From Serratia marcescens subsp. marcescens ATCC 13880 (GTDB lineage Bacteria > Pseudomonadota > Gammaproteobacteria > Enterobacterales > Enterobacteriaceae), in the NCBI RefSeq assembly GCF_017299535.1, contig NZ_CP071238.1:3782001-3846000 (forward strand): a stretch of DNA of 64,000 bases, in the 5' to 3' direction. Position numbers and translations under genes: made by a program. Positions 5,634 to 46,586 of this stretch are shown piece after piece (the first letter of the stretch is position 1; each line of letters opens with the position of its first letter). Under the pieces are notes generated by a model that did not search any database, was not told the DNA's origin, and saw only the letters and a list, made by a program, of their open reading frames with translations.

Positions 5634-5647
5634 TCCCCCGTTTCGCC

Positions 5648-5676: not shown

Positions 5677-5811
5677 GTTTGACCGGGATCAATCTCCCTT
5701 GAATAAATCCGGTTAACTGCTGATTTCTTGCCGCGCTGCGGCTACAATCCCCCGCTTTTACTGCGCCATCAGGTGGCGTGGTGCTGACCTGAAATCAGAC
5801 CGAGACACACT

Positions 5812-7164
5812 ATGTTTACACCGGAACTTCTCTCCCCGGCCGGCACGCTGAAAAATATGCGTTACGCCTTCGCCTACGGCGCCGATGCGGTTTACGCCGG
5901 CCAGCCGCGCTACAGCCTGCGGGTGCGCAACAACGAGTTCAACCACGAGAATCTGGCGCAGGGCATCAACGAAGCGCATGCGCTGGGCAAAAAATTCTAC
6001 GTGGTGGTCAACATCGCCCCGCACAACGCCAAGTTGAAGACCTTCCTGCGCGATCTGAAGCCGGTTATCGATATGGGCCCGGATGCGCTGATCATGTCCG
6101 ATCCTGGCCTGATCATGATGGTGCGCGAAGCCTTCCCGCAGATGGACATCCACCTGTCGGTGCAGGCCAACGCCGTTAACTGGGCGACGGTGAAGTTCTG
6201 GAAGCAAATGGGCCTGACCCGCGTGATCCTGTCGCGCGAACTGTCGCTGGAAGAGATCGCCGAGATCCGCGCCGAAGTGCCGGACATGGAGCTGGAAATC
6301 TTCGTCCACGGCGCGCTGTGCATGGCCTACTCCGGCCGCTGCCTGCTGTCCGGCTACATCAACAAGCGCGATCCCAATCAGGGCACCTGCACCAATGCCT
6401 GCCGCTGGCAGTACAAAGCGGAGGAAGGCAAAGAGGACGACACCGGCAATATCGTGCACCTGCACGAACCGATCCCGGTGCAAACCGTCGAGCCGACGCT
6501 GGGCATCGGCGCGCCCACCGACAAGGTGTTCATGCTGTCTGAAGCGCAAAAGCCAGGCGAATATATGAGCGCCTTCGAGGACGAACACGGCACCTATATC
6601 ATGAACTCCAAGGATCTGCGCGCCATCCAGCACGTGGAGCGTCTAACGCAGCTCGGCGTGCATTCGCTGAAGATCGAAGGGCGCACCAAGTCCTTCTACT
6701 ACTGCGCCCGCACCGCTCAGGTCTATCGCCGCGCCATCGACGACGCGGCCGCCGGCAAACCGTTCGATCCGACCCTGCTCACCACGCTGGAAGGCCTGGC
6801 GCACCGCGGCTATACCGAAGGCTTCCTGCGCCGCCACGTGCACGAAGCGCAGCAGAATTACGACTACGGCTCCTCGCTCTCCGAGCGCCAGCAGTTCGTC
6901 GGCGAATTCACCGGCGTGCGCCGTGATGGCTGGGCGGAAGTCGACGTGAAGAATAAGTTCGCGCTCGGCGACAGCGTCGAAATGATGACACCGGGCGGCA
7001 ACGTGGTGTTCACCCTCGAGAGCATGAAAAATAAGAAAGGCGAATCGATTGAGGTGGCGCCGGGCAACGGCCATATCGTTTATTTGCCGATCCCGCAGGA
7101 TATCGATCTCAATTATGCGTTGCTGATCCGCAATTTGGCGGAAGAAAATAGCGCCGGGGCATAA
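5812..7164 (+). CDS. trhP: tRNA 5-hydroxyuridine synthase TrhP (YegQ, peptidase U32 family)
   Basis: A 450-residue U32-family protein. TrhP makes 5-hydroxyuridine at position 34 of certain tRNAs from prephenate, in parallel with TrhO. The sequence shows the N-terminal barrel start MFTPELLSPAGTLKNMRYAF, the U32 signature around EIFVHGALCMAYSGRC, and clustered cysteines (in ALCMAYSGRCLL and TCTNACRWQY) expected to hold an iron-sulfur cluster. The C-terminal domain carries the small beta-barrel. Length matches the E. coli protein (453). It is followed by a terminator and then by CyaR, as in E. coli. Confidence 0.95.
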   Translation: MFTPELLSPAGTLKNMRYAFAYGADAVYAGQPRYSLRVRNNEFNHENLAQGINEAHALGKKFYVVVNIAPHNAKLKTFLRDLKPVIDMGPDALIMSDPGLIMMVREAFPQMDIHLSVQANAVNWATVKFWKQMGLTRVILSRELSLEEIAEIRAEVPDMELEIFVHGALCMAYSGRCLLSGYINKRDPNQGTCTNACRWQYKAEEGKEDDTGNIVHLHEPIPVQTVEPTLGIGAPTDKVFMLSEAQKPGEYMSAFEDEHGTYIMNSKDLRAIQHVERLTQLGVHSLKIEGRTKSFYYCARTAQVYRRAIDDAAAGKPFDPTLLTTLEGLAHRGYTEGFLRRHVHEAQQNYDYGSSLSERQQFVGEFTGVRRDGWAEVDVKNKFALGDSVEMMTPGGNVVFTLESMKNKKGESIEVAPGNGHIVYLPIPQDIDLNYALLIRNLAEENSAGA

Positions 7165-7169
7165 AAATG

Positions 7170-7196
7170 AATCGCCGTCATTCGGCGGCGATTTTT
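7170..7196 (+). terminator. Rho-independent terminator of trhP
   Basis: AATCGCCG (7170-7177) pairs with CGGCGATT (7186-7193) and is followed by a T run. It lies six bases after the trhP stop. Confidence 0.8.
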
Positions 7197-7204
7197 AGCA
7201 AATA

Positions 7205-7247
7205 TTAGAATTGGATCACATCAATGTGCGCGCAGCTTGGTTACTAT
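7205..7247 (+). promoter_or_regulatory. Predicted CRP site and -10 box of the CyaR promoter
   Basis: TTAGA-N6-TCACA at 7205-7220 resembles the CRP consensus TGTGA-N6-TCACA with one strong half-site. TACTAT at 7242-7247 fits a -10 hexamer. With transcription starting near 7251-7254, the CRP centre at 7212.5 lies about 40 bases upstream, the class II position. E. coli cyaR is known to need CRP-cAMP; the exact site here is inference. Confidence 0.55.
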
Positions 7248-7250
7248 CAC

Positions 7251-7340
7251 GCTGCTTAAAACGAACAACGAAAATATTTGCATAGCAATACTAGGAACCA
7301 CCTCCTTAGCCGGCCCAATCTCCCTTGGGCTGGCTTTTTC
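7251..7340 (+). ncRNA. cyaR: Hfq-dependent small RNA CyaR (RyeE)
   Basis: A segment of about 90 bases downstream of trhP (yegQ), the same genomic place as cyaR in E. coli. It contains the conserved CyaR seed region AGGAACCACCTCCTTAGCC, whose CCACCTCC can pair with Shine-Dalgarno sequences, and ends in a terminator hairpin (GGCCCAA/TTGGGCT type stem around TCTCC) followed by TTTTT. In E. coli CyaR represses ompX, luxS, nadE and others under CRP control. The 5' end is estimated from the -10 box and from the family's start with GCTG. Confidence 0.85.
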
Positions 7341-7631
7341 TTTATGGGTGCGCCTATTTTTTTCCACCACGCCTATTTCCATAACTTATTCCCATTATCC
7401 GTTTTAATAATAATAATCACGCCGCTTCGATATATAAATAACGCTACAGCGATTAATCCTCGCTTCTTTAACACTTTGCTTATTTCCGCGTAAAATTCAG
7501 ATAAATTCGCATTGCTTCATATTCACTGAGCGCCGGGAAATAACCGGAATTAGCTGAATATTCTGATGGCCTGGTGGCGGCAGCTGGTTTATCTTGAGGC
7601 ATTCTTGGTTTTCCGCCGGAGGATATCGGCA
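7341..7631. other. AT-rich gap between cyaR and yegS
   Basis: Roughly 290 AT-rich bases. A short open frame crosses it (from 7278), but it overlaps cyaR, has no ribosome binding site and has an unusual composition, so it is not called. The yegS promoter should lie here; no clear operator was recognised. Confidence 0.5.
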
Positions 7632-8537
7632 ATGCCTCAACACTCACATGCGTCCGCCCTGCTTATCATCAACGGCAAAGGCGCCGGTAACGAAGAGCTG
7701 CGTCAGGCGGTCAACCGGCTGCGCGAAGAACAGATAACGTTGCACGTGCGCGTCACCTGGGAGCACGGCGATGCCGCGCGCTATGTCGCGGAAGCCGCAC
7801 AGCTCGGCGTCGGCACCGTCGTCGCCGGCGGCGGTGACGGCACCATTAACGAAGTGGCCGCCGCGCTGGTGCAGCTGCCGGCGCACAACCGGCCGGCGCT
7901 GGGCATCCTGCCGCTCGGCACCGCCAACGACTTCGCCATGGCGTGCAATATCCCTCCGTCCCCCGAACTGGCGCTGCAGCTGGCGATCAAGGGCCGTTCA
8001 GTGCCGATCGATCTGGCGAAGGTCAACGGCGAGCGCTACTTCATCAACATGGCCACCGGCGGCTTCGGCACCCGCATCACCACCGAAACGCCGGAGAAGC
8101 TGAAGGCGGCGCTGGGCGGCGTGTCCTACTTTGTGCACGGCCTGCTGCGCATGGATACGCTGCAGGCCGACCGCTGTGAAATCCGCGGGCCGGACTTCCG
8201 CTGGGCCGGCGAGGCGCTGGTGATCGGCATCGGCAACGGCAAACAGGCCGGCGGCGGCCAGGAACTGTGCCCCAGCGCGCTGATCAACGACGGCCTGCTG
8301 CAGCTGCGCCTGCTGATCGCCGATGAACTGCTGCCGGCGCTGGTCGCCGCCCTGTTCAACGACGAAGAGAGCAACAGCATCCTCAGCGCGGCGCTGCCGT
8401 GGCTCGAGATCGACGCGCCGCATGAGATGACCTTCAACCTCGACGGCGAACCGCTCAAAGGCCGCCATTTCCGCATCGAAGTGTTGCCGCAGGCCATCGA
8501 ATGCCGCCTGCCGCCTAACTGCGCCCTGCTGGGCTAA
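7632..8537 (+). CDS. yegS: Lipid kinase YegS
   Basis: A 301-residue diacylglycerol-kinase-like catalytic domain protein. The glycine-rich nucleotide-binding signature [14 protein letters not shown] and [10 protein letters not shown] are both visible. The E. coli enzyme phosphorylates phosphatidylglycerol in vitro; the physiological lipid is uncertain. The ATG at 7632 is preferred over the in-frame codon at 7566 because GGAGGA lies nine bases upstream and the length then matches E. coli YegS (299). A GC-rich hairpin at 8545-8563 follows the stop. Confidence 0.92.
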
Positions 8538-8544
8538 CCTTGTC

Positions 8545-8563
8545 GGGCGCAGCCGCTGCGCCC
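8545..8563 (+). terminator. Possible terminator hairpin of yegS
   Basis: GGGCGCAG and CTGCGCCC form a perfect 8-bp stem with a CCG loop, seven bases after the yegS stop. The downstream tract (CGCTTCTTCC) is only partly T-rich, so termination strength is uncertain. Confidence 0.45.
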
Positions 8564-8634
8564 CGCTTCTTCCCCTCCGTTCATCCGCTTCCACTCGCGA
8601 TCAAATGTGATCCTCTCCGGCAAATTCATTAATT

Positions 8635-8648
8635 CATACTTGTATGGT
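8635..8648. promoter_or_regulatory. Candidate RspR operator upstream of rspA
   Basis: CATACTTGTATG (8635-8646) is a perfect inverted repeat of CATAC/GTATG with a two-base centre. The half-site GTATGGT recurs upstream of rspR (15243-15249). GntR-family regulators bind short palindromes of this kind. RspR binding is inferred, not shown. Confidence 0.4.
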
Positions 8649-8705
8649 AGTTAGTTCATGGCATATTTTCGCGCTATCTCTCCGCAGCTACAGGATGTGA
8701 AGGTT

Positions 8706-9920
8706 ATGAAAATCGTCAACGCCGAGGTGTTCGTCACCTGCCCGGGGCGCAACTTTGTCACGCTGAAAATCACCACCGATGACGGCATCATCGGCCTCGG
8801 TGACGCCACGCTGAACGGGCGCGAATTGCCGGTGGCCTCTTACCTGAAAGATCACCTCTGCCCGCAGTTGATCGGCCGCGACGCGCAGCGGATCGAAGAC
8901 CTCTGGCAATTCTTCTACAAAGGCGCTTACTGGCGGCGCGGCCCGGTGACCATGTCCGCCATTTCCGCCGTCGACATGGCGCTGTGGGACATCAAGGCCA
9001 AGGCCGCCAATATGCCGCTGTATCAGCTGTTGGGCGGCGCCTCGCGCTCGGGAGTGATGGTGTATTGCCACACCACCGGCCATTCGATCGACGAGGTGCT
9101 CGACGACTACGCCAAACATAAAGAGCAAGGCTTCAAGGCGATCCGCGTTCAATGCGGCGTGCCGGGCATGAAAACCACTTACGGCATGGCCAAGGGCAAA
9201 GGCCAGGCTTATGAGCCGGCCACCAAGGGCGACTGGCCGGAAGAGCAGCTGTGGTCGACGGAAAAATACCTCGATTTCACCCCCAAACTGTTCGACGCGG
9301 TGCGCACCAAGTTCGGTTTCAACGAGCACCTGCTGCACGACATGCACCACCGCCTGACGCCGATCGAAGCGGCGCGCTTCGGTAAAAGCGCCGAGCCGTA
9401 TCGCCTGTTCTGGATGGAAGATCCGACGCCGGCGGAAAATCAGGCCTGTTTCCGCCTGATCCGCCAGCATACCGTCACGCCGATCGCCGTCGGCGAGGTG
9501 TTCAACAGCATCTGGGACTGCAAGCAGCTGATCGAAGAACAGCTGATCGACTACATCCGCACCACCCTGACGCACGCGGGCGGCATTACCGGCATGCGGC
9601 GCATCGCCGACTTCGCCTCACTGTATCAGGTGCGCACCGGTTCACACGGCCCTTCCGATCTGTCGCCGATCTGCATGGCGGCGGCGCTGCACTTCGATTT
9701 GTGGGTGCCAAACTTCGGCGTGCAGGAATACATGGGCTATTCCGAGCAAATGCTCGAGGTGTTCCCGCACAGCTGGACGTTCGACGACGGCTATATGCAT
9801 CCGGGCGAAAAGCCGGGCATCGGCATCGAGTTCGATGAGAAGCTGGCGGCCCGTTACCCGTATGAACCGGCCTACCTGCCGGTCGCGCGTCTGGAGGATG
9901 GCACCTTATGGAACTGGTAA
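8706..9920 (+). CDS. rspA: Mannonate dehydratase-family protein RspA
   Basis: A 404-residue enolase-superfamily protein, the same length as E. coli RspA. The three metal ligands of the barrel are recognisable in [12 protein letters not shown] (Asp), [11 protein letters not shown] (Glu) and IAVGEVFNS (Glu). Family members dehydrate D-mannonate or related hexonates to 2-keto-3-deoxy acids, although several RspA proteins have low activity. The ATG at 8706 has GAAGG just upstream; the in-frame ATG at 8658 would add 16 atypical residues. It leads a six-gene cluster for sugar-acid use with its own GntR regulator. Confidence 0.92.
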
Positions 9921-36055: not shown

Positions 36056-36688
36056 TTGGGGCAGGATTATGCGTTGGTCGTTGATGACCATCCATTGGTA
36101 GCAAGCGGCATCGCCAATTTTCTCAGCACGCATTGCCGATTCAAACAGGCGCATGTGGTGACCAATGAAGAGAGTTGCTACCGCCATATTAGGGAAAATG
36201 GCCCACCGCGTTTACTGGTGATCGATTTTTGGCTCTCTTCCGGTACAGCGTTGAAATTACTCAAAGAAGTAAAACAACGTTATCCGCAGGTGCGGATTTT
36301 GGTGGTCAGCGGCGACGAGAATAACGATATATGGCAGAAAGTTAATAATGCCGGCGGGCATGGATTCGTGTTAAAAAACGAGCCACCGGAATTATTCGCC
36401 AGGGCGGTTTTTGCGCTGAACAATAATCAGGAATGGTTCCCTGACGGTAATGAAGCCACCGTTAAAAGCCACCATGAACACTTAAATAAATTCAATTTAA
36501 CGCCGAGGCAAATCGACGTATTAACTATGATGCTGCGCGGCCTGCCAAATAAAAGAATTGCGACGCAACTGTCTATTTCCGAACCCACCGTCAAAGAACA
36601 TATCAGCAATATATTGAAAAAGATCGGCGTCAACAGCCGGGTGGAAGCCATCACGCTGTTGCACGGCAAACGGGATCCGTCGTCATGA
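36056..36688 (+). CDS. LuxR/NarL-type response regulator
   Basis: A 210-residue two-component regulator. The receiver domain has the acidic pocket VVDDHP and the phospho-acceptor Asp57 in LLVIDFWLSSG; the C-terminal LuxR-type helix-turn-helix reads LTPRQIDVLTMMLRGLPNKRIA followed by SEPTVKEHISNIL. The start is TTG, supported by AGGAG six bases upstream and by the position at which the receiver domain begins. The stop overlaps the start of the sensor kinase as ATGA. The regulated genes are unknown. Confidence 0.88.
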   Translation: MGQDYALVVDDHPLVASGIANFLSTHCRFKQAHVVTNEESCYRHIRENGPPRLLVIDFWLSSGTALKLLKEVKQRYPQVRILVVSGDENNDIWQKVNNAGGHGFVLKNEPPELFARAVFALNNNQEWFPDGNEATVKSHHEHLNKFNLTPRQIDVLTMMLRGLPNKRIATQLSISEPTVKEHISNILKKIGVNSRVEAITLLHGKRDPSS

Positions 36689-38466
36689 GGTTTTTCCAGC
36701 ATTTACAAAATGATGGCATCTCCCCGCGCGCGCAGATCCGCCTGCTGGACAACACCTTCATGCGGCTGGTGTTCAGCTTCACCGCCGTGCCTTTCGTCGG
36801 CATCCCGTTCGCCATCTGGATTTATTTGCTGGGCGACAAGCTCGGCCCAACCATTACCTGGATCATCGTTTACCTGCTATGCGCCGTGGCGATCCGAATA
36901 GGGCATCGGCGCTACCAGCGCGAAGCCAAAGAGAATGATGAAGACGCCGTGCTGCGCCGCTGGCTGCCGCGTATTAATAAGGTGGCCTTTATTCACGGGT
37001 TGGGGATCTCATCACTCTATTTAATTACGCCGCAGACCCATAACTTTGACTTTTTCCTGCTGCTCAATATCAGCATCGCCGCGATCGTCGCCGCCAACGC
37101 AACGCACCTGACGCCCGTCATCAGCACCTTTACCCGCTTTTTCTTCGCCTCCTGGGGGCTGCTGAACCTCGGCATCATCTGGCGGCTGGAAGACGTGATG
37201 TTCATCGTGCTGATGCTGAACTTGTTGTACGGCTTCGCCATTTACCGCCACGCATTAACCTCGCATGCGTTCTTTATTCAGCAGGCGCTGCTCGAAGAGC
37301 AAAGCTCGCGCCTGGCGGAGCAGTTCCGCCAGGCTAAAGAAGAGGCGGAACAGGCGCTGTTGGACAAGAACCAGTTCCTGACCACCGCCAGCCACGATCT
37401 GCGCCAGCCGGTGCACGCCATGGGCTTTCTGATCGAGGCCATCATCCACAAAAACCGCGACGACAGCCTGACGCCGCAGCTGCTGGATCTGCAGCAGAGC
37501 GTGCGTTCGGTGCATTTGATGTTCAATTCGCTGCTCGATCTCAGCAAAATCGAATCCGGCAACGTGCGCACCGCCGCCACCCATGTGGATATCGGCGCCC
37601 TGCTCGACTCGGTGGTCACCCTGTTCCGCGAAGAGGCCAACAGCCGCGCCCTGACGCTGCGCACCTGGCGCCCCAGACAGCGTATCAGCGTGATGGGCGA
37701 TCCGCTGCTGGTGCGGCAATCGCTGATCAACCTGATCCAGAACGCCCTGCGCTACACGCAACGGGGCGGCGTGCTGATCGCCATCCGCCCGCGCGGCGCC
37801 GAGTGCCTGGTGGAAGTGTGGGACACCGGCGTGGGCATCGCCGACGAAGAGAAAAGCAAAATCTTCTCCCCTTACTACCGCCCCGAGCTGGCGTGGAAAA
37901 TCGACAGCGCCGGCCACGGGCTGGGGCTGGCGGTGGTGGCGCGCTGCGCCAAGCTGATGAAGGTGAAGTACGGCATGCACTCCGTCGAAGGCAAAGGATC
38001 GCGTTTCTGGATGCGCTTCACGCAATACATCGGCGAAGACAAAGCGCCGGAAACCGCGGCCGCCTACGACAACACCGCCACGCCTACCCGCTATGCGCCA
38101 CTGCGCGGCGCCTGCCTGGTGGTGGACGATGATCCCTTGGTGACCTCCGCCTGGGAGAGCCTGATGAGCACCTGGGGCATCACCGTGCGCTGCGCAGCCT
38201 CCGCCGAGGAAGCCTTCGCCATCGTCGACGACGGTTTTACGCCGTTCGCCGTGCTGTGCGACCAGCGCCTGCGTTCCGGCGAGAGCGGTTTCGACATCCT
38301 GAAAGCGCTGTTCGAACGCCTGCCGGACGTGAGCGGCGCGATGGTCAGCGGCGAGTTCAATTCGCAAATATTGCAAGAGGCCGAGCAGGAAGGCTATCTG
38401 GTGCTGCGCAAGCCGCTGGAACCGGCCAGGCTGCATGCGCTGCTGACGCAGTGGGGGGCGGGTTAA
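36685..38466 (+). CDS. Hybrid sensor histidine kinase with C-terminal receiver domain
   Basis: A 593-residue membrane kinase. Residues about 28-190 hold five or six helices; a coiled-coil (about 198-230) leads to the HisKA box with His237 in TTASHDLRQPVHAM; the ATPase domain shows NLIQNALRYTQ, DTGVGIADEE and GHGLGLAVV; a C-terminal receiver domain has VVDDDP and the acceptor Asp in AVLCDQRLRSGE near residue 530. There is no large periplasmic sensor, so the signal is probably sensed in the membrane. It pairs with the LuxR-type regulator just upstream. It converges on the small microcin-like gene at 38564. Confidence 0.88.
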   Translation: MRFFQHLQNDGISPRAQIRLLDNTFMRLVFSFTAVPFVGIPFAIWIYLLGDKLGPTITWIIVYLLCAVAIRIGHRRYQREAKENDEDAVLRRWLPRINKVAFIHGLGISSLYLITPQTHNFDFFLLLNISIAAIVAANATHLTPVISTFTRFFFASWGLLNLGIIWRLEDVMFIVLMLNLLYGFAIYRHALTSHAFFIQQALLEEQSSRLAEQFRQAKEEAEQALLDKNQFLTTASHDLRQPVHAMGFLIEAIIHKNRDDSLTPQLLDLQQSVRSVHLMFNSLLDLSKIESGNVRTAATHVDIGALLDSVVTLFREEANSRALTLRTWRPRQRISVMGDPLLVRQSLINLIQNALRYTQRGGVLIAIRPRGAECLVEVWDTGVGIADEEKSKIFSPYYRPELAWKIDSAGHGLGLAVVARCAKLMKVKYGMHSVEGKGSRFWMRFTQYIGEDKAPETAAAYDNTATPTRYAPLRGACLVVDDDPLVTSAWESLMSTWGITVRCAASAEEAFAIVDDGFTPFAVLCDQRLRSGESGFDILKALFERLPDVSGAMVSGEFNSQILQEAEQEGYLVLRKPLEPARLHALLTQWGAG

Positions 38467-38501
38467 CTGCGTCGATGGCGCACGTTATCCGCCAGCAATA
38501 A

Positions 38502-38534
38502 GGCAGGCTTAATGAATAAAACATTAAGCCTGCC
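38502..38534. terminator. Bidirectional hairpin between the kinase gene and the microcin-like gene
   Basis: GGCAGGCTTAATG (38502-38514) and CATTAAGCCTGCC (38522-38534) form a perfect 13-bp stem with a seven-base A-rich loop. It lies between two converging genes. There is no long T run beyond the stem. Confidence 0.5.
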
Positions 38535-38563
38535 GCATATTACGCTGCGTTATCTAAATACGA

Positions 38564-38758
38564 TTAATCGCATTTAGGCGGTTTTGGTTTGCAGACCGGC
38601 GGCTCAGGTTTACATACCGGCGGTTTTGGTGTGCAACCGCCCCAGGCATTATTCCACGCGTTTCCCCAGCTGTTAACAACCTTGCCGATGATAGCCAAAC
38701 CCAGGCCAATCGTTGCGCCGTTCACCTGCTGAACTTCTGTTGAGTTTAATTCTCTCAT
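38564..38758 (-). CDS. Putative class II microcin precursor with Cys/Pro heptad tail
   Basis: A 64-residue peptide. The first 15 residues, MRELNSTEVQQVNGA, fit the double-glycine-type leader of class II microcins (compare the MccV leader MRTLTLNELDSVSGG), with predicted cleavage after Gly14-Ala15. The 49-residue core starts with a hydrophobic Gly-rich segment (TIGLGLAIIGKVV), continues with a Trp/Asn-rich part, and ends with three exact seven-residue units C-x-P-x-P-P-x plus a final Cys-Asp; cysteines fall at 42, 49, 56 and 63. GGAG precedes the ATG. It lies downstream of the CvaA/CvaB-like exporter genes on the same strand. No immunity gene was recognised. Confidence 0.78.
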   Translation of the reverse strand: MRELNSTEVQQVNGATIGLGLAIIGKVVNSWGNAWNNAWGGCTPKPPVCKPEPPVCKPKPPKCD

Positions 38759-38808
38759 TTTTCATCTCCATTCACTAAAAATAATCAATTTAAAAAGACT
38801 GCTTTTTA

Positions 38809-38823
38809 TGAACCGTCGGTTCA
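38809..38823. promoter_or_regulatory. 15-bp palindrome upstream of the microcin-like gene
   Basis: TGAACCG-T-CGGTTCA is a perfect palindrome about 50 bases before the peptide start, in an AT-rich gap after the ABC transporter gene. It could be an operator for the peptide gene's own promoter. The binding protein is unknown. Confidence 0.35.
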
Positions 38824-38879
38824 CGCTTTAGGTATAAGACGCTCAATAAATTAACTCAATAACGAAAATCTTAATCAAA

Positions 38880-38911
38880 GGTGAAATAAATATAAAATTT
38901 TATATTTCACC
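38880..38911 (-). terminator. AT-rich hairpin just after the ABC transporter gene
   Basis: GGTGAAATA and TATTTCACC form a 9-bp stem, and the interior holds the palindrome ATAAAATTTTAT. It starts seven bases past the transporter stop. It may be a weak terminator or processing site separating exporter and peptide genes. Confidence 0.35.
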
Positions 38912-38917
38912 AAACAA

Positions 38918-41032
38918 TTATGTCATTGCATGTACAGATTGCAATGTAATTACCCGATCTGCCGATGCAATCGTCGATGGCCGATGAGCAATGATAACGC
39001 GGGTCATTTTCAACGAGGATATGGCTTCGTTCACCCTTTTTTCATTATCCAGATCCAAATGACTGGTCGCTTCGTCCATAAACAGAATACTGGGCCTTCG
39101 ATATAATGCGCGGGCGATAAGAACCCGCTGTTTTTGCCCGCCGGAAAGGCTACCCCCCAATTCGCCCACCAACGTTTCATATCCCATCGGCATTTTCATA
39201 ATGTCGTCGTGAATATTGCAATGCTTGGCGCATTCAACGATAAATTCCGTATCGGGATGAGCATCAAAACTGCATATGTTCTCGGCAATTGAACCGGCAA
39301 GCAGTTTATCTTCTTGCAATACACACGCGATGCACTCCCGATAATTATTAATGCCGATATCATGAATGTTAATGCCGTTGATAAACAAGCGCCCTTCCGT
39401 CGGTTCCAACAGCCCACACATCAGCTTCATCAACGTGGTTTTGCCGACGCCTGAAGGCCCGACGATCGCCACGCTTTCTCCCGCCGCAATCTGCAGGCTG
39501 AGCCCGGGGATCACTGGGCGCGAAAGGCTGTCATATTGATAAAGCAGATCGCGCACTTCAAAAGTCACCGCCTCGTTGGGATTGCATATCTTGCGATAGG
39601 GCTTCTCTTCCTCTGTCGTAGAAAGCACGATGTCCGCCAGCCTTTCATTATGCAAATTCAGCATTCGCAGCCGAATGACCATATCGATAAGATTTGACGC
39701 GCGATCGGAGAATTGCCCCCGATAGGCATTAAAGGCGACAAACATGCCTAATGTCATTTGACTGTCGATCACTAAAGACGCGCCTAACCACAAGATAACG
39801 ATTTGATCGCAGGCCGCAAGAAACGCATTCACGCCGCCAAAGAACATATCGAGCTTCGTCACCCGAATATTGGCGTTTGCCGTATCGATATTTAAATTTA
39901 GCCAGAACTGCGAACGCGTTCCCGCCAACCCCAACGACTTCAGCGTCGCGATGCTGTACAACGTCTCCATAAAATGTGAGCTGGCTTTCGCCGACTTCAC
40001 CAATTGCTCCTCGGACGCTTGCCGATAATAGCGATAGGTCGAAAGGCGCAGCAGAACATATAAGACCGTAAAGCCGGAGGCTACCCATACCAGCCAGCCG
40101 CCGTACATGAACATCATGATAAATACGCCGACCGACATGATGCCATCAATGATGCTGGAAACGATACTGGTGGTAAACGTGGTGCGAATGGCGTCCAGCG
40201 AGCCAAAGCGCGATTGAATATCACCCAGCTTGCGCTTTTCAAAATAGGCAAGCGGGAGCTTCATCAAATGATCAAACAGCCCTGATTTCCACTGTATATC
40301 GATCAGCGCGCCCATCACGATGGAGATCCACGAGCGAAACATCGAAACACAGGTGCGGAACAAGATAAAAAACAGTAAACCGACGCAAATAATGACCAAT
40401 AAATTATGGTCGCCGGCCTGGATGACGTGGTCCATCACCAACTGAGTCCCGACGGGCATCAGCAGGTTGACGGCCTCAATGACCAGCGACAGAGCGAAAA
40501 TTTTTACCAGCGCGCTTTTAAGACCGGTGACATTGTTGAGCAGTTTTCTAAAGTGCAGGCGGTTTTTCTGCACCACAGGCGTGAATTCACTGCTTGGCCA
40601 TACCTCTAAAGCTATTCCGGTAAAATGCAGGGAAAACTCCTGCAGGCCGATAACCCGGCGGCCAAATGCCGGATCGTGCAGGGTTATCCGTCCACCGCGA
40701 ATGTTGACCAGGACCACAAAGTGATTCATATCCCAGTGCAATATGCAGGGCCTTTTCACCTGGTGAATCTCATCCAGGCTCAAGGATAAAGCCCGCGTTT
40801 TCAAATTGAGATTCTCGGCGATCGCGATCAGCGAGCTCAGGGTGGCGCCGCGGGCCGATATATCAAACTTCTGGCGCATCGACAGCATATCGATGTGCAT
40901 GCCGTAATAGCCGCACACCATCGCTAAACTGGCCAGCCCGCATTCGGCGGCCTCCGTTTGCAAGACCTGCGGCACTTTTCTTCTGAGCGACAGGTTTAGC
41001 TTGCCAACGATATTCTCATAAACTTTATTCAC
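38918..41032 (-). CDS. cvaB: Peptidase-containing ABC exporter, CvaB-like
   Basis: A 704-residue PCAT transporter that resembles the colicin/microcin V exporter CvaB along its length. The N-terminal C39 peptidase is complete: Gln and catalytic Cys in LQTEAAECGLA (Cys31), His in HWDMNHFVVL (His104) and Asp in LHDPAFG (Asp120). Six membrane helices follow, then an ATPase with Walker A GPSGVGKTT, signature LSGGQKQR, Walker B ILFMDE and the switch His in IIAHRPS. It should cut leader peptides after GG/GA and export the core with CvaA and TolC. The GTG at 41032 aligns with CvaB; a GTG at 41050 is possible. It overlaps the cvaA-like gene. Confidence 0.93.
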   Translation of the reverse strand: MNKVYENIVGKLNLSLRRKVPQVLQTEAAECGLASLAMVCGYYGMHIDMLSMRQKFDISARGATLSSLIAIAENLNLKTRALSLSLDEIHQVKRPCILHWDMNHFVVLVNIRGGRITLHDPAFGRRVIGLQEFSLHFTGIALEVWPSSEFTPVVQKNRLHFRKLLNNVTGLKSALVKIFALSLVIEAVNLLMPVGTQLVMDHVIQAGDHNLLVIICVGLLFFILFRTCVSMFRSWISIVMGALIDIQWKSGLFDHLMKLPLAYFEKRKLGDIQSRFGSLDAIRTTFTTSIVSSIIDGIMSVGVFIMMFMYGGWLVWVASGFTVLYVLLRLSTYRYYRQASEEQLVKSAKASSHFMETLYSIATLKSLGLAGTRSQFWLNLNIDTANANIRVTKLDMFFGGVNAFLAACDQIVILWLGASLVIDSQMTLGMFVAFNAYRGQFSDRASNLIDMVIRLRMLNLHNERLADIVLSTTEEEKPYRKICNPNEAVTFEVRDLLYQYDSLSRPVIPGLSLQIAAGESVAIVGPSGVGKTTLMKLMCGLLEPTEGRLFINGINIHDIGINNYRECIACVLQEDKLLAGSIAENICSFDAHPDTEFIVECAKHCNIHDDIMKMPMGYETLVGELGGSLSGGQKQRVLIARALYRRPSILFMDEATSHLDLDNEKRVNEAISSLKMTRVIIAHRPSTIASADRVITLQSVHAMT

Positions 41033-42302
41033 GAAGTGGCCCCGACACACTGTTTTTCATGTCATAAAATGGCGCGAACATCCATTGGTAGATGGGTCTT
41101 TTCTCCAGGAAAAGCGTGGCTTGCGCCTTCATGCCGCTTGAAAGGTTCAGCTGCTTTCCCTGATAGCCGAACTGCGTGTTATCGATAGCCACCAGCACTT
41201 TGTAGTACGACTCAACCAGTTCAGCCGATTGCCGAGTTGGCGAACTGCTGTAAGTGGACATTTCCTGAATCGATGCGGGAACATAAGCGATGCTTTCGAT
41301 CACGCCGGGAAACTGACCAAATTTTTCATACGGAAAGGCGTCATAACGAACGTTGATATGATCGCCTCGGCTCACGTAAGGCACGCTGCTGTTGGGCAAC
41401 CATAAAACCAAATAATAGATGGCATGATTACTGGGGATTAATTGCGCCAGGCTGTCCCCCGTATTGACCATTTGCCCAGGCGTCACGCTGAGCGATTCAA
41501 CGCGCCCGTCCGCCGGCGCATTGACAATCAATGAGCCGCTGGCGTCCGCTTCGGCCAGCTGCCGCAGGAGGTCATTGCGCTGAAATTGATATTGCGAGAT
41601 TTGATTATCGAAATCGGACGCTCTTGTCGCGAGATCGCTATTCAGATTAGTTATCTGCAAAGACTCTTGAATGCTTTGGTTATAGAGACTGTGGAACGTG
41701 CTCTGCTGCTGATAGTAGAGGTAAACCTGGTTATTCAGCTGATCCCGATTAATGAGCCCCTTACTGCGATACTCATCGTAATTTTTCATGGTTTCGCGCA
41801 TAAAGTTAACGCCGTTGCGTGAATTTTCGACCATCTGTTTGGACTGGCTGTGCGCCAGTTTATATTGGTCAATCTGCGCTTGCAGATTGACCAAGGTCGT
41901 TTTCTTGTTCGCCTCCAATTTGGCGATGATGCTATCGACCTGCGCCAGTTGATTTTCTATCGCCTGCCGCGTGCTTGCGCTGACGGTGCCGGAATCCGTC
42001 ACCCTGCTGACGTCTATCTGATAAAGATGCTGCCCTTTTTTTACCTGATCGCCCACATTGACAAAGCGTTGTGCAATGAATCCCTGCTGAGTAGCAAATA
42101 TGTTGACCGATCTTGGCAGCGTCGTGACCTCTCCGCCCACGCTGATACGCCGGGTATAACCGCCATAGGTCACGAAAATGATCAGCACAGAAACGAATGA
42201 AAGTGAAATGCCCGCGATGACCCAGGCCGGCAACCCTGCAATTAACAATGCTTTTCCTGCCCATTTAGAACGACTATGCGATAAGGCCTCTTCCCTAAAC
42301 AA
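41025..42302 (-). CDS. cvaA: Microcin export membrane fusion protein, CvaA-like
   Basis: A 425-residue HlyD-family adaptor. The N terminus MFREEALSHSRSKWAGKALL and the C terminus LFLEKRPIYQWMFAPFYDM closely follow CvaA of the microcin V system. One membrane helix (about 22-47) anchors it; a biotinyl-lipoyl-like domain and a long coiled coil (about 100-245) follow. It links the CvaB-like ABC transporter with TolC. The start is TTG, which gives the N terminus expected from CvaA; GGAGAGG lies upstream. Its stop overlaps the start of the ABC gene. Confidence 0.92.
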   Translation of the reverse strand: MFREEALSHSRSKWAGKALLIAGLPAWVIAGISLSFVSVLIIFVTYGGYTRRISVGGEVTTLPRSVNIFATQQGFIAQRFVNVGDQVKKGQHLYQIDVSRVTDSGTVSASTRQAIENQLAQVDSIIAKLEANKKTTLVNLQAQIDQYKLAHSQSKQMVENSRNGVNFMRETMKNYDEYRSKGLINRDQLNNQVYLYYQQQSTFHSLYNQSIQESLQITNLNSDLATRASDFDNQISQYQFQRNDLLRQLAEADASGSLIVNAPADGRVESLSVTPGQMVNTGDSLAQLIPSNHAIYYLVLWLPNSSVPYVSRGDHINVRYDAFPYEKFGQFPGVIESIAYVPASIQEMSTYSSSPTRQSAELVESYYKVLVAIDNTQFGYQGKQLNLSSGMKAQATLFLEKRPIYQWMFAPFYDMKNSVSGPLRE

Positions 42303-42622
42303 ATTCTGACCTCTCCATATATAGCGACACCGTTAATTTTTATCTTATCCATGGCCCAACACGGCGCTTATTTAGATTTAGTCCTTGTTGGCAAAACCCA
42401 CAAGTAATAATAATCTTAAAAAATCATAAAACTGCTTAAACGTCACAAAAAGTGCGACCCTAATATTAGCGACGGCGTTATGAGTTGCATATTTCAACGC
42501 CGACCTCTTTAATCTAAGCGTATTCTCATCAAGCCGTCATTCACAGAGGCCGCGAGAATTAAGTGGCGAAACGCTTTACGTTTCGTTCTTGAGGCATAGG
42601 GATAAAGTTGAAAGGATTTACT
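42303..42622. other. Divergent promoter region between cvaA-like and second peptide gene
   Basis: About 320 AT-rich bases between the exporter operon (minus strand) and the second leader-peptide gene (plus strand). It must hold promoters for both. A perfect 7-bp hairpin CGAAACG-CTTTA-CGTTTCG (42567-42585) lies in the leader of the second gene, 38 bases before its start. Only reading frames below 20 codons were seen. Confidence 0.5.
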
Positions 42623-42940
42623 ATGAAAGAGCTAAATACTGCAGAGATCGAAATCGTTTCTGGTGCTGGGATTATTTCCGATACGGCAAGCTTTGTATCA
42701 GGATTTGCCGGCGATGTTGTCATTGATACCGTAAAATTGGCCAATGATGCGCTTAATACCCGATTGATCTCTTCCGTAGGCCAAGGGTTCAACGCGATCG
42801 GTTTTGGCTTGGGCGCCGTTCATAATGTCGCGGACTCGCTTGGCTATGCGGCATTTAAAAGCGTTGCAGCCGTAGGCTCCCTGCTGGGCGGGGATGCAAG
42901 CCGTATCGAATATCATTACGAGAAAGAATGGGGTGCTTGA
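42623..42940 (+). CDS. Putative second class II microcin-like secreted peptide
   Basis: A 105-residue protein. It starts MKELNTAEIEIVSGAG, which has the same pattern as the 38564-38758 peptide and class II microcin leaders (M-R/K-E-L-N-x-x-E-x-x-x-V-x-G-A), with predicted cleavage after Gly14-Ala15. The 90-residue remainder is Gly/Ala/Val-rich with repeated hydrophobic stretches (FVSGFAGDVVIDTV; AIGFGLGAVHNVADSLGYAAF; SVAAVGSLLGG) and no cysteine. AAAGGA precedes the ATG at 42623. It is divergent from the CvaAB-like exporter. A toxin is the leading idea; a secreted accessory protein is possible. Confidence 0.75.
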   Translation: MKELNTAEIEIVSGAGIISDTASFVSGFAGDVVIDTVKLANDALNTRLISSVGQGFNAIGFGLGAVHNVADSLGYAAFKSVAAVGSLLGGDASRIEYHYEKEWGA

Positions 42941-42975
42941 AAACAAGCGAATCCCTCTGAAAGATTAATGATGCT

Positions 42976-43003
42976 AACCACCTGCCCAATCAGGTGGTTA
43001 TTT
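42976..43003. terminator. Bidirectional terminator hairpin between the second peptide gene and the FAD oxidoreductase gene
   Basis: AACCACCTG and CAGGTGGTT form a 9-bp stem with a CCCAAT loop between two converging genes; a short ATTTC tract follows on the plus strand. Confidence 0.6.
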
Positions 43004-43017
43004 CAATTACGCACTCA

Positions 43018-44643
43018 CTAACTCTTCTGTTTGAAAACCGCTTTGGTCAATGGAGAGGAGAACACGTTGTGCGGATCATACTTATTCAGCACGTTGCAGG
43101 CATGATTCCAACTGTCATTTTTCCCTGCCCCGGCATTAAAGCTGCGCGGAATGTTTTCTTCGAGTACGGTTTTATCCTGCCACGCTGCCTGTGAAGTATA
43201 ACCCCAGCCTTTACTCCACTCTACGCGAACCGTCGCATAGTCGCCCGCATAGTGGCTAAAAATCCATTTTTCCATTTCACTGTAGAATTTATTGGCATCC
43301 GGCGTATCGGGCATGGTCAGAATATCCAACCAGATCGCGACATCCCATTCCGGATGGGATTCAACGGGGCGAATGGCCGAAAGATCGGGAACAATGGCAT
43401 TGGCCACCGCGCTCTCTTTTGCACTGTCCAACCCGGTGACGCGAATTTCAATTGGGCCATTCATCGGAAATGAATTTTTGCGCTGGTAATCGGCCACCAT
43501 TTCTTCATATTTTTTCGTGAAATCGTGCAATACATTCTGAATATTGCTCCGTTTCGTGATTATCGCGTAACCATTGGCCGTCACGCGCAGCGTTGTCGGT
43601 TTCACATACAACAGCAGATCCTTGCTCCACCCCCACAGATCCGCCGACACGGTGGCCCCTAAACCAATGCTGACCAACTCCATCTGCGCCTTGCCGAGTG
43701 TCGGAGTCAGCTCCGGGTGGCCATTATTGATTTTTTTAATGATATCGGAAATTTTAACCGGCAAATTATCCGAGAACGGATAGTTAAATGGACCATTAAC
43801 CGGTTTTGACACTTTTGGGAAGCTATCTTCTTGCTTCCACACTTTCAGCCATGGTTTTTCCGTGAACGGGAACCAGATGACTTCAACGCGCCCGCACAGA
43901 TCCAAGAAATGGCTGAAGGTATTTTTTGTCGTGCTCGCAGTGGAAAAAAGATCCGCCGCGGTGACATTAACATAACTTTGGCAGCGTAAACGCCTGTTGC
44001 GCGGCACCTGCAGCGTCACTTCGCTGATAAAAGCCCGGCCGACATGCACCAGGAATGCCGAGCTCTCCGCATTATCACGCGTAAACTCCTTTAATTCATA
44101 CTTCGACCGCGCCTGATCCCAAACGACAGCTTTTAGCGACACCACGCTATTGCTCACGGAACCAAAGCTGGCAAACTCAGCCAGACGCTCATCTTTTGCC
44201 GGGATGCAGGTTCCATGGCCGCCGATGGCGAGCACGCCACCTAGGGTCAGATCACCAGGCGCCGGCGTCGCATAAAAGCCGAGTTTCTTTTTTTCTAATT
44301 CAGTGAGCAAAGCCTGCATTGTCACCCCCGTTTGCGCGGTGACGTATCCATGCTCTTCCACTTTATTGATTGAGATGTTTTTGAATTTCCTGGTGAGGTC
44401 GATCAGCACGACATTGCTGTTATCCTCCCCGTTTGCAATAACGAGCGGTGACCAGTTGTGCTTGATGCCAACCGGACGCACGCAATATTTATTCTCATGC
44501 GCCCAGTTAATCACGGCCAAGAGCTCATCCGTATTTTGTGGATAGCAGGTCAGAATATGATTGCCGGAGATTTCTTTTGACCAATTAACAAAGTTGACAT
44601 ACTCATAACCCACAGGGAACGTGTTCAAACTAGAACTAGTCAT
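43018..44643 (-). CDS. FAD-binding oxidoreductase, vanillyl-alcohol oxidase fold, cholesterol-oxidase-like
   Basis: A 541-residue flavoprotein. The N-terminal PCMH-type FAD domain shows ILTCYPQNTDELLAVINWAHE, VRPVGIKHNWSPL and GGVLAIGGHGTCIP, whose His is a candidate for covalent flavin attachment. The C-terminal substrate domain resembles that of bacterial type II cholesterol oxidases and ends in NKYDPHNVFSSPL, a common ending of VAO-fold oxidases. There is no signal peptide. AAAGGAAG precedes the ATG. A Rob-like regulator gene lies just upstream on the same strand. A role in peptide maturation is not supported by the sequence. Confidence 0.8.
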   Translation of the reverse strand: MTSSSLNTFPVGYEYVNFVNWSKEISGNHILTCYPQNTDELLAVINWAHENKYCVRPVGIKHNWSPLVIANGEDNSNVVLIDLTRKFKNISINKVEEHGYVTAQTGVTMQALLTELEKKKLGFYATPAPGDLTLGGVLAIGGHGTCIPAKDERLAEFASFGSVSNSVVSLKAVVWDQARSKYELKEFTRDNAESSAFLVHVGRAFISEVTLQVPRNRRLRCQSYVNVTAADLFSTASTTKNTFSHFLDLCGRVEVIWFPFTEKPWLKVWKQEDSFPKVSKPVNGPFNYPFSDNLPVKISDIIKKINNGHPELTPTLGKAQMELVSIGLGATVSADLWGWSKDLLLYVKPTTLRVTANGYAIITKRSNIQNVLHDFTKKYEEMVADYQRKNSFPMNGPIEIRVTGLDSAKESAVANAIVPDLSAIRPVESHPEWDVAIWLDILTMPDTPDANKFYSEMEKWIFSHYAGDYATVRVEWSKGWGYTSQAAWQDKTVLEENIPRSFNAGAGKNDSWNHACNVLNKYDPHNVFSSPLTKAVFKQKS

Positions 44644-44771
44644 AACTGACTTCCTTTTAAAATTAAAATCGATAGAGATAAAAACGGCAACAGCCCGAGC
44701 GCTAATTAATCACCCTGATACGCACCTCCTTTTCCTTGGGATAACCCCTCTGTTTTACTGCCCGAATAGCA

Positions 44772-45587
44772 TCAAGACTTGCCAATATAAACCAACACCT
44801 TGACATTAAGTTCTGCGTATTGAAAATTCTTTTCTTTATGCAATTCAATTAAAAAGCCGTTTCTTATTCGCATGCCAAGCAAAGGAAGATAGGCGTCATA
44901 GATGCTGTCAAAAAAAACCAGGTATTCGTTCAACCTGCCGTTAAACTCGAACAACAAATACTGCCCTCTTATCAACGTCAGATTGCGTGTCTCGTAGTAC
45001 CCTTTGCTGAGCGTTACTTCCCAACCGGATGATGCCAACTTTACCGTGCGCATTGACGTATCGGTGTTTTTCCCTGTGCGGCTGCTGTATTTCTGTCGTT
45101 CCTCTCCTCCAGAGCTGGAAGCACTCATCGAATGATAGAGAAAAAACTTATATCCCTTAAGCAGGTATATGTTCTTGGGCATTTCGACAAAATGATATGC
45201 TGACGGATTTTGTATTAAAAAAGGAGGGAGGTGCTTGGAAAAGTCCCATTCCTGGCTCGTTCTAAAGTCCTTTGGGCTCTCACCGAAAAAGCGTTGAAAG
45301 GCGCGGCTAAAAGCCTGCTGCGAGCTAAAGCCGATAGCAGTAGCCACTTCCAATACTTTTAAATCAGACTGTTTGAGCATGACGGCGGACTTGCTCAGAC
45401 GCCTATTTCTGATATACGTCGCTATTTTCATTCCCGTATAACGCTGAAACATTCTTTGCAAGTGCCATTTCGAATAACCAGACAAATCCGATAACTTTTC
45501 TATCGAGAGATCATGCTGTATATTCATCTCGATCAAATTAACTAGCTCGACCACGATACTATGCTGGTAACTCATAATGACATCCAT
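44772..45587 (-). CDS. AraC-family regulator, Rob-like
   Basis: A 271-residue regulator with the N-terminal double helix-turn-helix of Rob/MarA/SoxS (LSDLSGYSKWHLQRMFQRYTG and IGFSSQQAFSRAFQRFFGESP) and a C-terminal domain resembling the GyrI-like domain of Rob (RGQYLLFEFNGRLNEYL). Rob-type proteins bind amphipathic compounds and activate stress and efflux genes. The C-terminal part is shortened or diverged compared with Rob. The ATG at 45587 is used; an ATG at 45575 is possible. Its gene precedes the FAD oxidoreductase gene by 128 bases on the same strand. Confidence 0.85.
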   Translation of the reverse strand: MDVIMSYQHSIVVELVNLIEMNIQHDLSIEKLSDLSGYSKWHLQRMFQRYTGMKIATYIRNRRLSKSAVMLKQSDLKVLEVATAIGFSSQQAFSRAFQRFFGESPKDFRTSQEWDFSKHLPPFLIQNPSAYHFVEMPKNIYLLKGYKFFLYHSMSASSSGGEERQKYSSRTGKNTDTSMRTVKLASSGWEVTLSKGYYETRNLTLIRGQYLLFEFNGRLNEYLVFFDSIYDAYLPLLGMRIRNGFLIELHKEKNFQYAELNVKVLVYIGKS

Positions 45588-46586
45588 GCCCTAACAAAAC
45601 CCACCCCCAGACAACCTGCTCATTGGGCTTTTATCCATTAGAATGAAAAACAAAGCGCTGCCGCAATCATGCAATTAGGATTAGAATGTGAAAAACGATG
45701 AACCTTTCATAGTTGATTGACAGAGAGATACTTCTTTTGGGGTAGACGTCCTCCGCGTGACGTTATTGGTATAATTCTTATAAAGCTTTTCCCTAGTGAA
45801 GGCTTTTCCTGTCTCTTTCATCTCGACCAATATCCATCCTGAAGTTGTGCAACTAAGCAGTCAAAAGAAAGCATGTCCTGGCATCCATTGATAAATCACT
45901 TGCCTCCCTCTCGGCGGTGCATTTTAATACCCTTACATTTAGAGTAGCCTATGTAGATAGCTTAGAAAATATCAAATACCAGATAATTATACAGTTCGCA
46001 CTTTATGTTACGACGATAATTAAAAGATAAGAAAAATCATATAATTAGAATTTCAACTCCAAGAAATGAATGCTGATAAAACTTAGAATTCGCCCTTGAG
46101 AAGCGTTATTAAATACAATGAAACTGCTGATTTCCCCAATAAAAACAGAAGGAAAGATTTATAAAATAAGAAATAGACTAATTCACCATATCCTTCTGAT
46201 ATATTTATTCGTCAGACCAAGTATTTCAGAAAAATCCCATAAAAAGGCTTGCAGAATCCTTTAATTTTCGCAGAGGATTAATTAACTACGCTATAGCCCG
46301 ATGCCGATGAGTCGACGCGCCTCAATACGGCAATTCATTTTAATGCCGCGGCCCGGCGGGTACGGTGAATAAAGACCCGTTATCCGACGAAGTGCGCGTG
46401 GTTGCAGAATACCGTGCTGCGGATAGGCGCAAAACCGAGATGGAAAACGCCGCGTCTCAGGAAATGAGCCGTAAGCAAAGCGCAGGCTGCTCCGTGCGGG
46501 CTGTCTTCTCCGTTCGCCCCTCTCTCAACCCAGCCTTCCTTTCGGATCGGAGGCCGTCTACGGCTTAGGGCGCCAAACATCGGGCA
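45588..46586. other. Long AT-rich non-coding gap left of guaA
   Basis: About 1 kb without a supportable gene. A good extended -10 promoter (TGGTATAAT, 45768-45775-type match) points to the right at about 45770. Composition changes from very AT-rich to GC-rich near 46300. A short GTG-initiated frame (46365-46568, 67 codons) and an opposing frame of similar size occupy the GC-rich part; neither has a ribosome binding site or recognisable family, so neither is called. Confidence 0.5.

What the first reader, a model, noticed from the sequence alone, without database searches (positions are those of the whole stretch)
38564..42940. Microcin V-type export locus with two unrecognised leader-peptide genes
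A CvaA-like adaptor and a CvaB-like ABC transporter with complete C39 Cys/His/Asp residues are flanked by two small genes (64 and 105 aa) whose first 15 residues share the pattern M-R/K-E-L-N-x-x-E-x-x-x-V-x-G-A. This is the arrangement of class II microcin loci, but neither core sequence resembles a microcin I know. The set sits in an AT-rich island. If the peptides are cleaved and exported, this is a new microcin or secreted-peptide system in Serratia.
Basis: partly seen in the sequence, partly recalled or inferred. Interest (0 to 1): 0.88.

Follow-up and report, generated by a model that had tools for sequence, protein, structure and literature searches.

The report
Exported peptides beside a cholesterol-oxidase-like gene
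A Serratia gene island pairs a peptide exporter with two leader-bearing peptides, and one of these belongs to a conserved family that sits next to lipid-oxidising enzyme genes in other bacteria, so it may be a partner of those enzymes rather than an ordinary bacteria-killing microcin.

Summary
In detail: a CvaA/CvaB-type exporter with intact C39 and ABC motifs lies between two small leader-peptide genes in an AT-rich island of Serratia (probably S. marcescens ATCC 13880). That S. marcescens carries many class II microcins is already published (PMC13101503, 2026); its sequence list could not be read, so whether these two are on it is unknown. The microcin reading is doubtful for the 105-aa peptide (pep2). 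I inspected 14 pep2 loci. The partner is a cholesterol-oxidase-type gene (PF09129) in 11 of 14 (tail-to-tail, 50-133 bp, in 10; 5.2 kb away in one), an RTX protein in 2, and a lipoxygenase in 1 (P. aeruginosa, probably PA1168-PA1169). In 9 of 14 no exporter was seen nearby. The pep2 core is conserved and under purifying selection; 10 of 14 loci have no hydrophobic small ORF beside it, though the window has one unconvincing candidate. The 64-aa peptide (pep1) was found in the same 4 of 30 Serratia genomes and in none of 6 other pep2 genomes. Best reading: pep2 is an exported helper of lipid-oxidising enzymes acting on membranes. Linkage and conservation are shown; export and mechanism are inferred.

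The parts
38564..38758 (-). pep1: 64 aa, leader MRELNSTEVQQVNGA, then a hydrophobic Gly/Trp stretch and a tail with Cys every 7 residues (C42, C49, C56, C63); predicted mature 49 aa, 5140.0 Da reduced if cut after residue 15
   Evidence: homologues in 4 of 30 Serratia genomes, none in 6 of 6 non-Serratia pep2 genomes
38502..38534 (-). terminator-like hairpin after pep1 (13 pairs)
   Evidence: consensus match only, 10 sites found in the stretch against a mean of 6.0 in shuffles
38918..41050 (-). C39-peptidase ABC transporter (CvaB-type, PCAT), 710 aa
41025..42302 (-). membrane-fusion/adaptor protein (HlyD/CvaA-type), 425 aa, overlapping the PCAT start
42623..42940 (+). pep2: 105 aa, leader MKELNTAEIEIVSGA, conserved core ending YHYEKEWGA; predicted mature 90 aa, 9179.1 Da if cut after residue 15
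   Evidence: family member in 14 inspected loci
42975..43000 (+). terminator-like hairpin between the converging pep2 and oxidase genes
   Evidence: consensus match only
42994..43194 (+). 66-aa GTG ORF with one hydrophobic stretch, 53 bp after pep2 and mostly antisense to the oxidase 3' end; weak candidate immunity ORF, probably spurious
   Evidence: an ORF of this kind stands there only in the window and its near copy G029; none in the other 12 of 14 pep2 loci
43018..44643 (-). cholesterol-oxidase-type FAD enzyme (VAO family, PF09129), 541 aa, tail-to-tail with pep2 (77 bp), no obvious signal peptide
   Evidence: (PDB 3js8 E=2.1e-188)
44772..45587 (-). AraC/Rob-like regulator upstream of and co-directional with the oxidase gene; an AraC-oxidase order recurs in the S. 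inhibens-like locus (AraC 37% identical)

Best explanation
The locus is a probably horizontally acquired secretion island. PCAT and adaptor (with a TolC-like channel elsewhere, not looked for) cut the double-glycine-type leaders of pep1 and pep2 and export the mature peptides. Pep2 belongs to a conserved family whose usual genetic partner is a lipid-oxidising enzyme: a cholesterol-oxidase-type enzyme in Enterobacterales and a lipoxygenase in P. aeruginosa, with an RTX protein of unknown activity in a third form. I propose that mature pep2 is an exported, membrane-active helper that gives the enzyme access to sterol or lipid in a foreign, most likely eukaryotic, membrane. That would explain why no conserved immunity gene is seen. 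Pep1, a Cys/Pro-tailed companion seen here only in Serratia, would share the exporter. Shown: gene linkage, co-occurrence, congruent divergence, purifying selection, conserved leader. Inferred: cleavage, export, membrane action, target, and how the oxidase, which has no visible signal peptide, reaches its substrate.
For: Among 30 Serratia genomes the oxidase (E<=1e-40) is in exactly the 4 that have pep2. All 6 strong non-Serratia hits from 392 family genomes are tail-to-tail with the oxidase gene, in four chromosomal settings (three genomes of one genus share one); the Pantoea anthophila plasmid is too. Distances of pep2 and oxidase across 11 loci correlate (Mantel r 0.878, 0 of 5000 permutations). 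P. aeruginosa record: pep2 homologue 77 bp before a lipoxygenase gene (operon per PMC8271024). RTX form: 75 and 68 bp before an RTX gene. dN/dS of pep2 is 0.03-0.16 (several synonymous distances near saturation). G14 is invariant and E8 and V12 nearly so in 27 aligned sequences. All 10 pep2 genomes examined encode a strong C39 domain (best E<=7.5e-35), against 94 of 275 at E<=1e-15 in a family sample that includes six of the ten. No hydrophobic small ORF within 420 bp of pep2 in 10 of 14 loci, while a scan of the same kind finds one at another PCAT locus of this genome.
Against: No experiment shows export, cleavage or any effect of pep2. The pep2-linked oxidases lack a signal peptide by eye (10, L126; the L125 ORF as listed has a hydrophobic stretch before a likelier ATG), so contact with outside lipid is unexplained; LoxA does have a signal-like N-terminus. 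Whether P. aeruginosa has a C39 transporter was not tested. The RTX N-terminal ~240 aa had no Pfam, NCBIfam or PDB match. PF09129 oxidases occur without pep2: 2 of 2 more distant enterobacterial ones (48% identity) and 4 of 4 opened on Burkholderiales and Streptomyces plasmids. Those two enterobacterial genomes also have C39 domains, and three of the six non-Serratia pep2 genomes are one genus, so the C39 enrichment is weak support. Four of the 14 pep2 loci do have a hydrophobic small ORF nearby, among them the window itself (66 aa after pep2, shared with G029). At other PCAT loci 32 of 49 leader ORFs also lack such a neighbour (the 49 include copies of pep1 and pep2 in L042 and L043), so its absence says little. 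The pep2 structure prediction could not be obtained.
Confidence: 0.38

Rival explanations
1. Pep1 and pep2 are ordinary class II (IIa-like) microcins that kill related bacteria; immunity is given by an unrecognised or unlinked gene, or by the 66-aa ORF at 42994-43194.
For: Leader, PCAT and adaptor as in class II microcin loci; many S. marcescens class II microcins are active and their immunity genes are often unannotated (PMC13101503); a hydrophobic ORF follows pep2 in the window and G029; lack of a visible immunity gene is common at PCAT loci.
Against: Pep2 core is conserved across genera, tracks an oxidase gene and often sits away from any exporter; the 66-aa ORF is absent from 12 of 14 pep2 loci and is mostly antisense to the oxidase; pep2 has no class IIb Ser/Gly tail.
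Confidence: 0.27
2. Pep2 is not exported but is a dedicated small partner (chaperone, stabiliser or inhibitor) of the oxidase or lipoxygenase; its leader-like N-terminus is ancestral or used otherwise.
For: In 9 of 14 loci no exporter was seen nearby; most oxidases next to it appear cytosolic.
Against: Leader recognition residues remain invariant or nearly so in 27 sequences; all 10 pep2 genomes examined encode a C39 domain somewhere; in Serratia pep2 is built into an exporter locus in 4 loci.
Confidence: 0.15
3. The oxidase is a tailoring enzyme that oxidises the pep2 precursor before export, making a modified peptide.
For: One-to-one pairing of peptide and FAD enzyme and congruent distances; cytosolic-looking oxidase.
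Against: The closest solved relatives are named cholesterol oxidases (PDB 3js8, 1i19); the P. aeruginosa partner is a lipoxygenase reported as secreted and acting on fatty acids (PMC6702342 passages); the RTX partner has a serralysin-type C-terminus as in secreted proteins.
Confidence: 0.12

Closest known systems
Class II microcin export loci (MccV type; the 93 putative S. marcescens sequences of PMC13101503)
   Same: PCAT plus adaptor, small genes with a double-glycine-type leader, genus Serratia
   Different: No conserved adjacent immunity-like gene; pep2 has a conserved core tied to an enzyme gene and is often unlinked from an exporter; whether pep1 or pep2 is among the 93 could not be read
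Type II (VAO-family) cholesterol oxidase, PF09129 (PDB 3js8, 1i19)
   Same: Full-length match; HGT motif of the FAD region kept in 11 of 11 pep2-linked oxidases
   Different: No obvious signal peptide, whereas the Mycetohabitans and Burkholderia relatives opened have a Tat-like N-terminus; paired with pep2
P. aeruginosa PA1168-PA1169 (loxA) operon
   Same: A pep2-family gene 77 bp upstream of a lipoxygenase gene, 42% identity to pep2; PA1168 is only listed or called hypothetical in the passages seen
   Different: Enzyme is a lipoxygenase with its own signal-like N-terminus; operon order, not tail-to-tail; PAO1 tags assigned from recall plus the paper's operon statement
DUF5862 peptides at PCAT loci
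   Same: Leader-bearing small genes beside the same transporter family (L121)
   Different: Unrelated core (PF19180); no oxidase gene seen in that locus by eye

Membership tests
Class II microcin | Double-glycine-type leader | tested here: met
   Leader motif in both peptides, 2 hits in 64 kb; conserved in relatives
Class II microcin | PCAT and adaptor encoded with the peptide | tested here: inconclusive
   Met in the window; for the pep2 family met in 4 of 14 loci, not seen in 9, contig end in 1
Class II microcin | Adjacent cognate immunity gene in the window | tested here: inconclusive
   None beside pep1; after pep2 one hydrophobic 66-aa GTG ORF, mostly antisense to the oxidase gene
Class II microcin | Immunity-like gene conserved with the peptide family | tested here: not met
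   No hydrophobic small ORF within 420 bp of pep2 in 10 of 14 loci; those in the other four are not shared beyond window and G029; a scan of this kind finds one at L127
Class II microcin | Sequence relation to a characterised microcin beyond the leader | tested here: not met
   Pfam and NCBIfam: none; MccV E=0.54 on the leader region only. Not compared with the 2026 Serratia set
Class II microcin | Antibacterial activity | not testable with these tools
   needs an assay
Peptidase-containing ABC transporter (PCAT) | C39 domain with Cys, His, Asp plus intact ABC motifs | tested here: met
Type II cholesterol oxidase (PF09129) | FAD_binding_4 and Chol_subst-bind domains over the whole length | tested here: met
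   PF09129 E=1.2e-145; PDB 3js8 E=2.1e-188
Type II cholesterol oxidase (PF09129) | Oxidation of cholesterol | not testable with these tools
   activity not shown for this gene; extracellular activity of an S. marcescens isolate is reported, no gene in the passages seen (PMC6512041)

The most novel reading that the evidence does not exclude
A previously unnamed kind of secretion partnership: a family of leader-bearing peptides, exported by C39 transporters, that serve as dedicated membrane helpers of lipid-oxidising enzymes (cholesterol oxidase, lipoxygenase and possibly an RTX enzyme) in Enterobacterales and Pseudomonas, aimed at eukaryotic membranes and therefore without immunity genes.
Probability: 0.32. 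Interest if true: 0.8.

Novelty: new variant of a known kind. Interest (0 to 1): 0.6.

Why it matters
If right, some genes that genome mining could list as putative microcins are not antibacterial but belong to lipid-directed secretion modules, which may help explain putative microcins that show no killing. It also gives the hypothetical gene upstream of P. aeruginosa loxA a family, a predicted route and testable partners. Even if pep2 is not exported, the conserved pairing of a small protein with two different lipid-oxidising enzymes is a new handle on how bacterial cholesterol oxidases and lipoxygenases reach membrane lipids.

Tried and rejected
The last scan brought up the 66-aa ORF of the window; for it I lowered the best reading from 0.40 to 0.38, the novel case from 0.33 to 0.32, and raised the microcin rival from 0.25 to 0.27. 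Mobile-element origin by tRNA: no tRNA in the window. The idea that pep2 replaces the oxidase's signal peptide fails for LoxA, which has both, and for the two 48%-identity enterobacterial oxidases, which have neither. Lipoxygenases on plasmids: 7 records matched; besides the P. aeruginosa one I opened 2 (Pantoea ananatis, prophage-like; one Rhodococcus), and neither has a pep2-like gene annotated or found by profile. Rarity: class sample 1 of 369 genomes, G000 itself; order sample 4 of 394, G000 plus three weak leader matches at PCAT loci of one genus. E. coli genomes: no DNA match to the pep2 region. Literature: no paper found joining such a peptide with cholesterol oxidase or lipoxygenase (open-licence PMC library only). 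Dropped before counts: the 13 weak genomes (E 3.9e-5 to 9.3e-4); four such places were fetched (L203-L206) and scored by profile but their genes were not studied. The phage fragment is not in the 14. Of the 43 proteins, most have no known context here.
Full report
WHAT IS THERE. The transporter has C39, ABC_membrane and ABC_tran domains and the adaptor is HlyD-type; the C39 Cys, His and Asp motifs and the ABC motifs are intact. The strict leader motif begins at only two ATG codons in the window, and these are the two peptide genes. GC is 46.7% over 38467-46300 against 60.6-64.2% in the six 8-kb blocks away from the island. The left edge is sharp: the neighbouring sensor kinase is in 26 of 30 Serratia genomes; of the 20 loci returned, 18 lose homology to the window at positions 38454-38469, at the kinase stop codon, and only the window genome and G029 continue into the island. 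The right side (guaA) was not within the returned flanks, so an empty site was not shown. The window genome is probably S. marcescens ATCC 13880: its second contig is 43,189 bp with a PCAT at 16064, as in plasmid records of that strain. This is an inference.

Seventy-seven bases past pep2, converging on it, is a 541-aa FAD enzyme of the type II cholesterol-oxidase family (PF09129 E=1.2e-145; PDB 3js8 E=2.1e-188), with an AraC/Rob-like regulator upstream on the same strand. In the S. inhibens-like locus (G005, L125) an AraC-oxidase block lies on the other side of the exporter, beyond pep1, but still in the cluster.

DISTRIBUTION IN SERRATIA. Pep1 is in 4 of 30 genomes, pep2 in 4 of 30, the oxidase in 4 of 30: the same four (G000, G002, G005, G029). 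Matches to the PCAT at E<=1e-60 are in 24 of 30. In G002 a pep2-oxidase pair stands alone, with no exporter in the 13 kb read (L123). A second locus of G002 has pep1'-pep2' with a PCAT and, 75 bp after pep2', a gene for a 498-aa RTX protein with a serralysin-type C-terminus and an unassigned N-terminus (L122). G005 has the same pep1'-pep2'-RTX set near a contig end (L124).

THE PEP2 FAMILY. A profile search gave 43 proteins at E<=0.01, named, where a name was given, from Serratia, Pantoea, Erwinia, the Tenebrionibacter/Tenebrionicola group and Pseudomonas. Alignments of 23 and 27 members show a conserved core (invariant G14, G30, N41, N45, G53, H67, D71, G85, G89, H98, E102). Searching 392 genomes of the GTDB family gave 20 with a match, 7 of them strong (E<=3e-27), including G000. 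The family is rare: samples of 394 order and 369 class genomes gave no strong hit besides G000. The six strong non-Serratia places were all opened; all six have the oxidase gene tail-to-tail with pep2 and no PCAT in the fetched 9.6-17 kb. One of these (L200) lies about 1 kb from a contig end, and three (L198-L200, one genus) share the same chromosomal setting. The Pantoea anthophila plasmid shows the same pair. On a P. aeruginosa record a pep2 homologue (42% identity) lies 77 bp upstream of a lipoxygenase gene. One paper calls PA1168 and PA1169 (loxA) an operon (PMC8271024, passage); that this gene is PA1168 rests on that statement plus recall of the PAO1 gene order. PA1168 is named in 5 papers of the library, in the passages seen only in expression results or as hypothetical.

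COUNTS. Of 14 pep2 loci inspected, 11 have the oxidase (10 tail-to-tail with 50-133 bp between, 1 at 5.2 kb), 2 the RTX gene and 1 the lipoxygenase. A PCAT is in the stretch read in 4 (window, L126, L125, L122), not seen in 9 (for L165 and L166 by annotation only), and open in 1 (L124, contig end). Pep2 and oxidase distances over the 11 loci correlate (Mantel r 0.878, 0 of 5000 permutations); shared species history contributes. dN/dS is 0.03-0.16 for pep2 pairs; the pairs with moderate synonymous distance (L122-L124, L198-L199) give 0.08 and 0.03. This fits a conserved partner better than an arms-race toxin. Counter-cases: PF09129 oxidases of 48% identity in two other enterobacterial genomes (2 of 393 besides G000 in the order sample), and those on three Burkholderiales and one Streptomyces plasmid records opened (of 9 plasmid records matched, one being the Pantoea plasmid), have no pep2-like gene in the stretch read.

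EXPORT. Leader residues are kept across the family. All 10 pep2-positive genomes examined have a strong C39 domain, against 94 of 275 in a family sample that includes six of the ten. The two genomes with a pep2-less oxidase have C39 domains as well, and three of the six non-Serratia cases are one genus, so this is weak support. Export by the window's PCAT is inferred.

IMMUNITY. Pep1 has no hydrophobic small ORF beside it in the window. For pep2, a scan of 420 bp on both sides in all 14 loci finds none in 10; L123 and L198 have one each upstream, not shared with other loci; the window and G029 share a 66-aa GTG ORF just after pep2, mostly antisense to the oxidase 3' end, and G029 has a further 39-aa one. 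The 66-aa ORF is the one thing in the window that could be called an immunity candidate; its restriction to two near-identical loci and its antisense position make it doubtful. A scan of this kind finds a 55-aa hydrophobic ORF beside the peptide of another PCAT locus of this genome (L127). At other PCAT loci only 17 of 49 leader ORFs have such a neighbour, so absence alone is weak evidence.

MECHANISM. I favour pep2 as an exported membrane-active helper of lipid-oxidising enzymes. Both enzyme types attack lipids held in membranes (established knowledge), a peptide that loosens a membrane would help, and a target in sterol-containing membranes would need no immunity gene. Unexplained: how an oxidase without a visible signal peptide reaches sterol, the role of pep1, and the RTX partner. 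An isolate of S. marcescens with cholesterol oxidase activity in the supernatant has been reported, with no gene named in the passages seen (PMC6512041; the paper is inconsistent about which strain number is which).

KNOWN OR NEW. PMC13101503 (abstract, introduction, results and discussion read; further passages; its supplement could not be opened) already establishes class II microcins in S. marcescens. Its main text has no word beginning with 'oxidase' or 'oxidoreductase'. PMC13174018 (passages) reports candidate immunity ORFs next to all six of its active grouped microcin candidates in Erwinia and Pantoea, unlike most pep2 loci here. PMC9746304 and PMC11494933 were seen as search listings only. 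Searches for a link between such peptides and cholesterol oxidase or lipoxygenase found nothing (open-licence papers only).

Noticed in passing
L127 (G000:C1:2378000-2394000), 5651-9713: A second PCAT locus of the same genome has a 95-aa leader peptide, an adjacent 55-aa hydrophobic ORF (immunity-like) and, next to it, large ORFs that look NRPS-like by eye; it resembles the Db11/SM39 locus described in PMC13101503.
   Followed up: partly
L129 (G000:C2, 43-kb plasmid), 5355-9197: Plasmid-borne PCAT and adaptor with a 78-aa leader ORF (MMKELSQVEVKMVSGG...) upstream; the same plasmid is in many ATCC 13880 records.
   Followed up: no
L121 (G002:C1:50000-63000), 1624-2957: Two near-identical leader peptides in tandem near a PCAT; the one tested is DUF5862, a family of unknown function.
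   Followed up: no
L122 9123-10619(-) and L124 8664-10160(+): RTX protein, 498 aa, with a serralysin-type C-terminus and an N-terminal ~240 aa without a Pfam, NCBIfam or PDB match, directly after a pep2 homologue.
   Followed up: partly
L232 3-248(-), Pseudomonas phage Ostro record OR683408: N-terminal 82 residues of a pep2-family gene at the record start near the integrase; the record also carries bacterial genes (OprD, COX1), so it may be flanking host DNA.
   Followed up: partly
L142-L144 (three unnamed 2.6-2.9 Mb genomes of one genus in the same order): PCAT loci next to a ~1,472-aa gene (MukB-type by recall) with one or two short leader peptides (73-82 aa) sharing mainly the leader region with pep2.
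   Followed up: no
L060 (Serratia sp. M24T3): Four related leader peptides (60-72 aa) in one PCAT locus, an apparent tandem family.
   Followed up: no
window 36056-38466(+): LuxR-type response regulator and hybrid kinase (NahK/ErcS-like) directly left of the island; the kinase is in 26 of 30 Serratia genomes.
   Followed up: no
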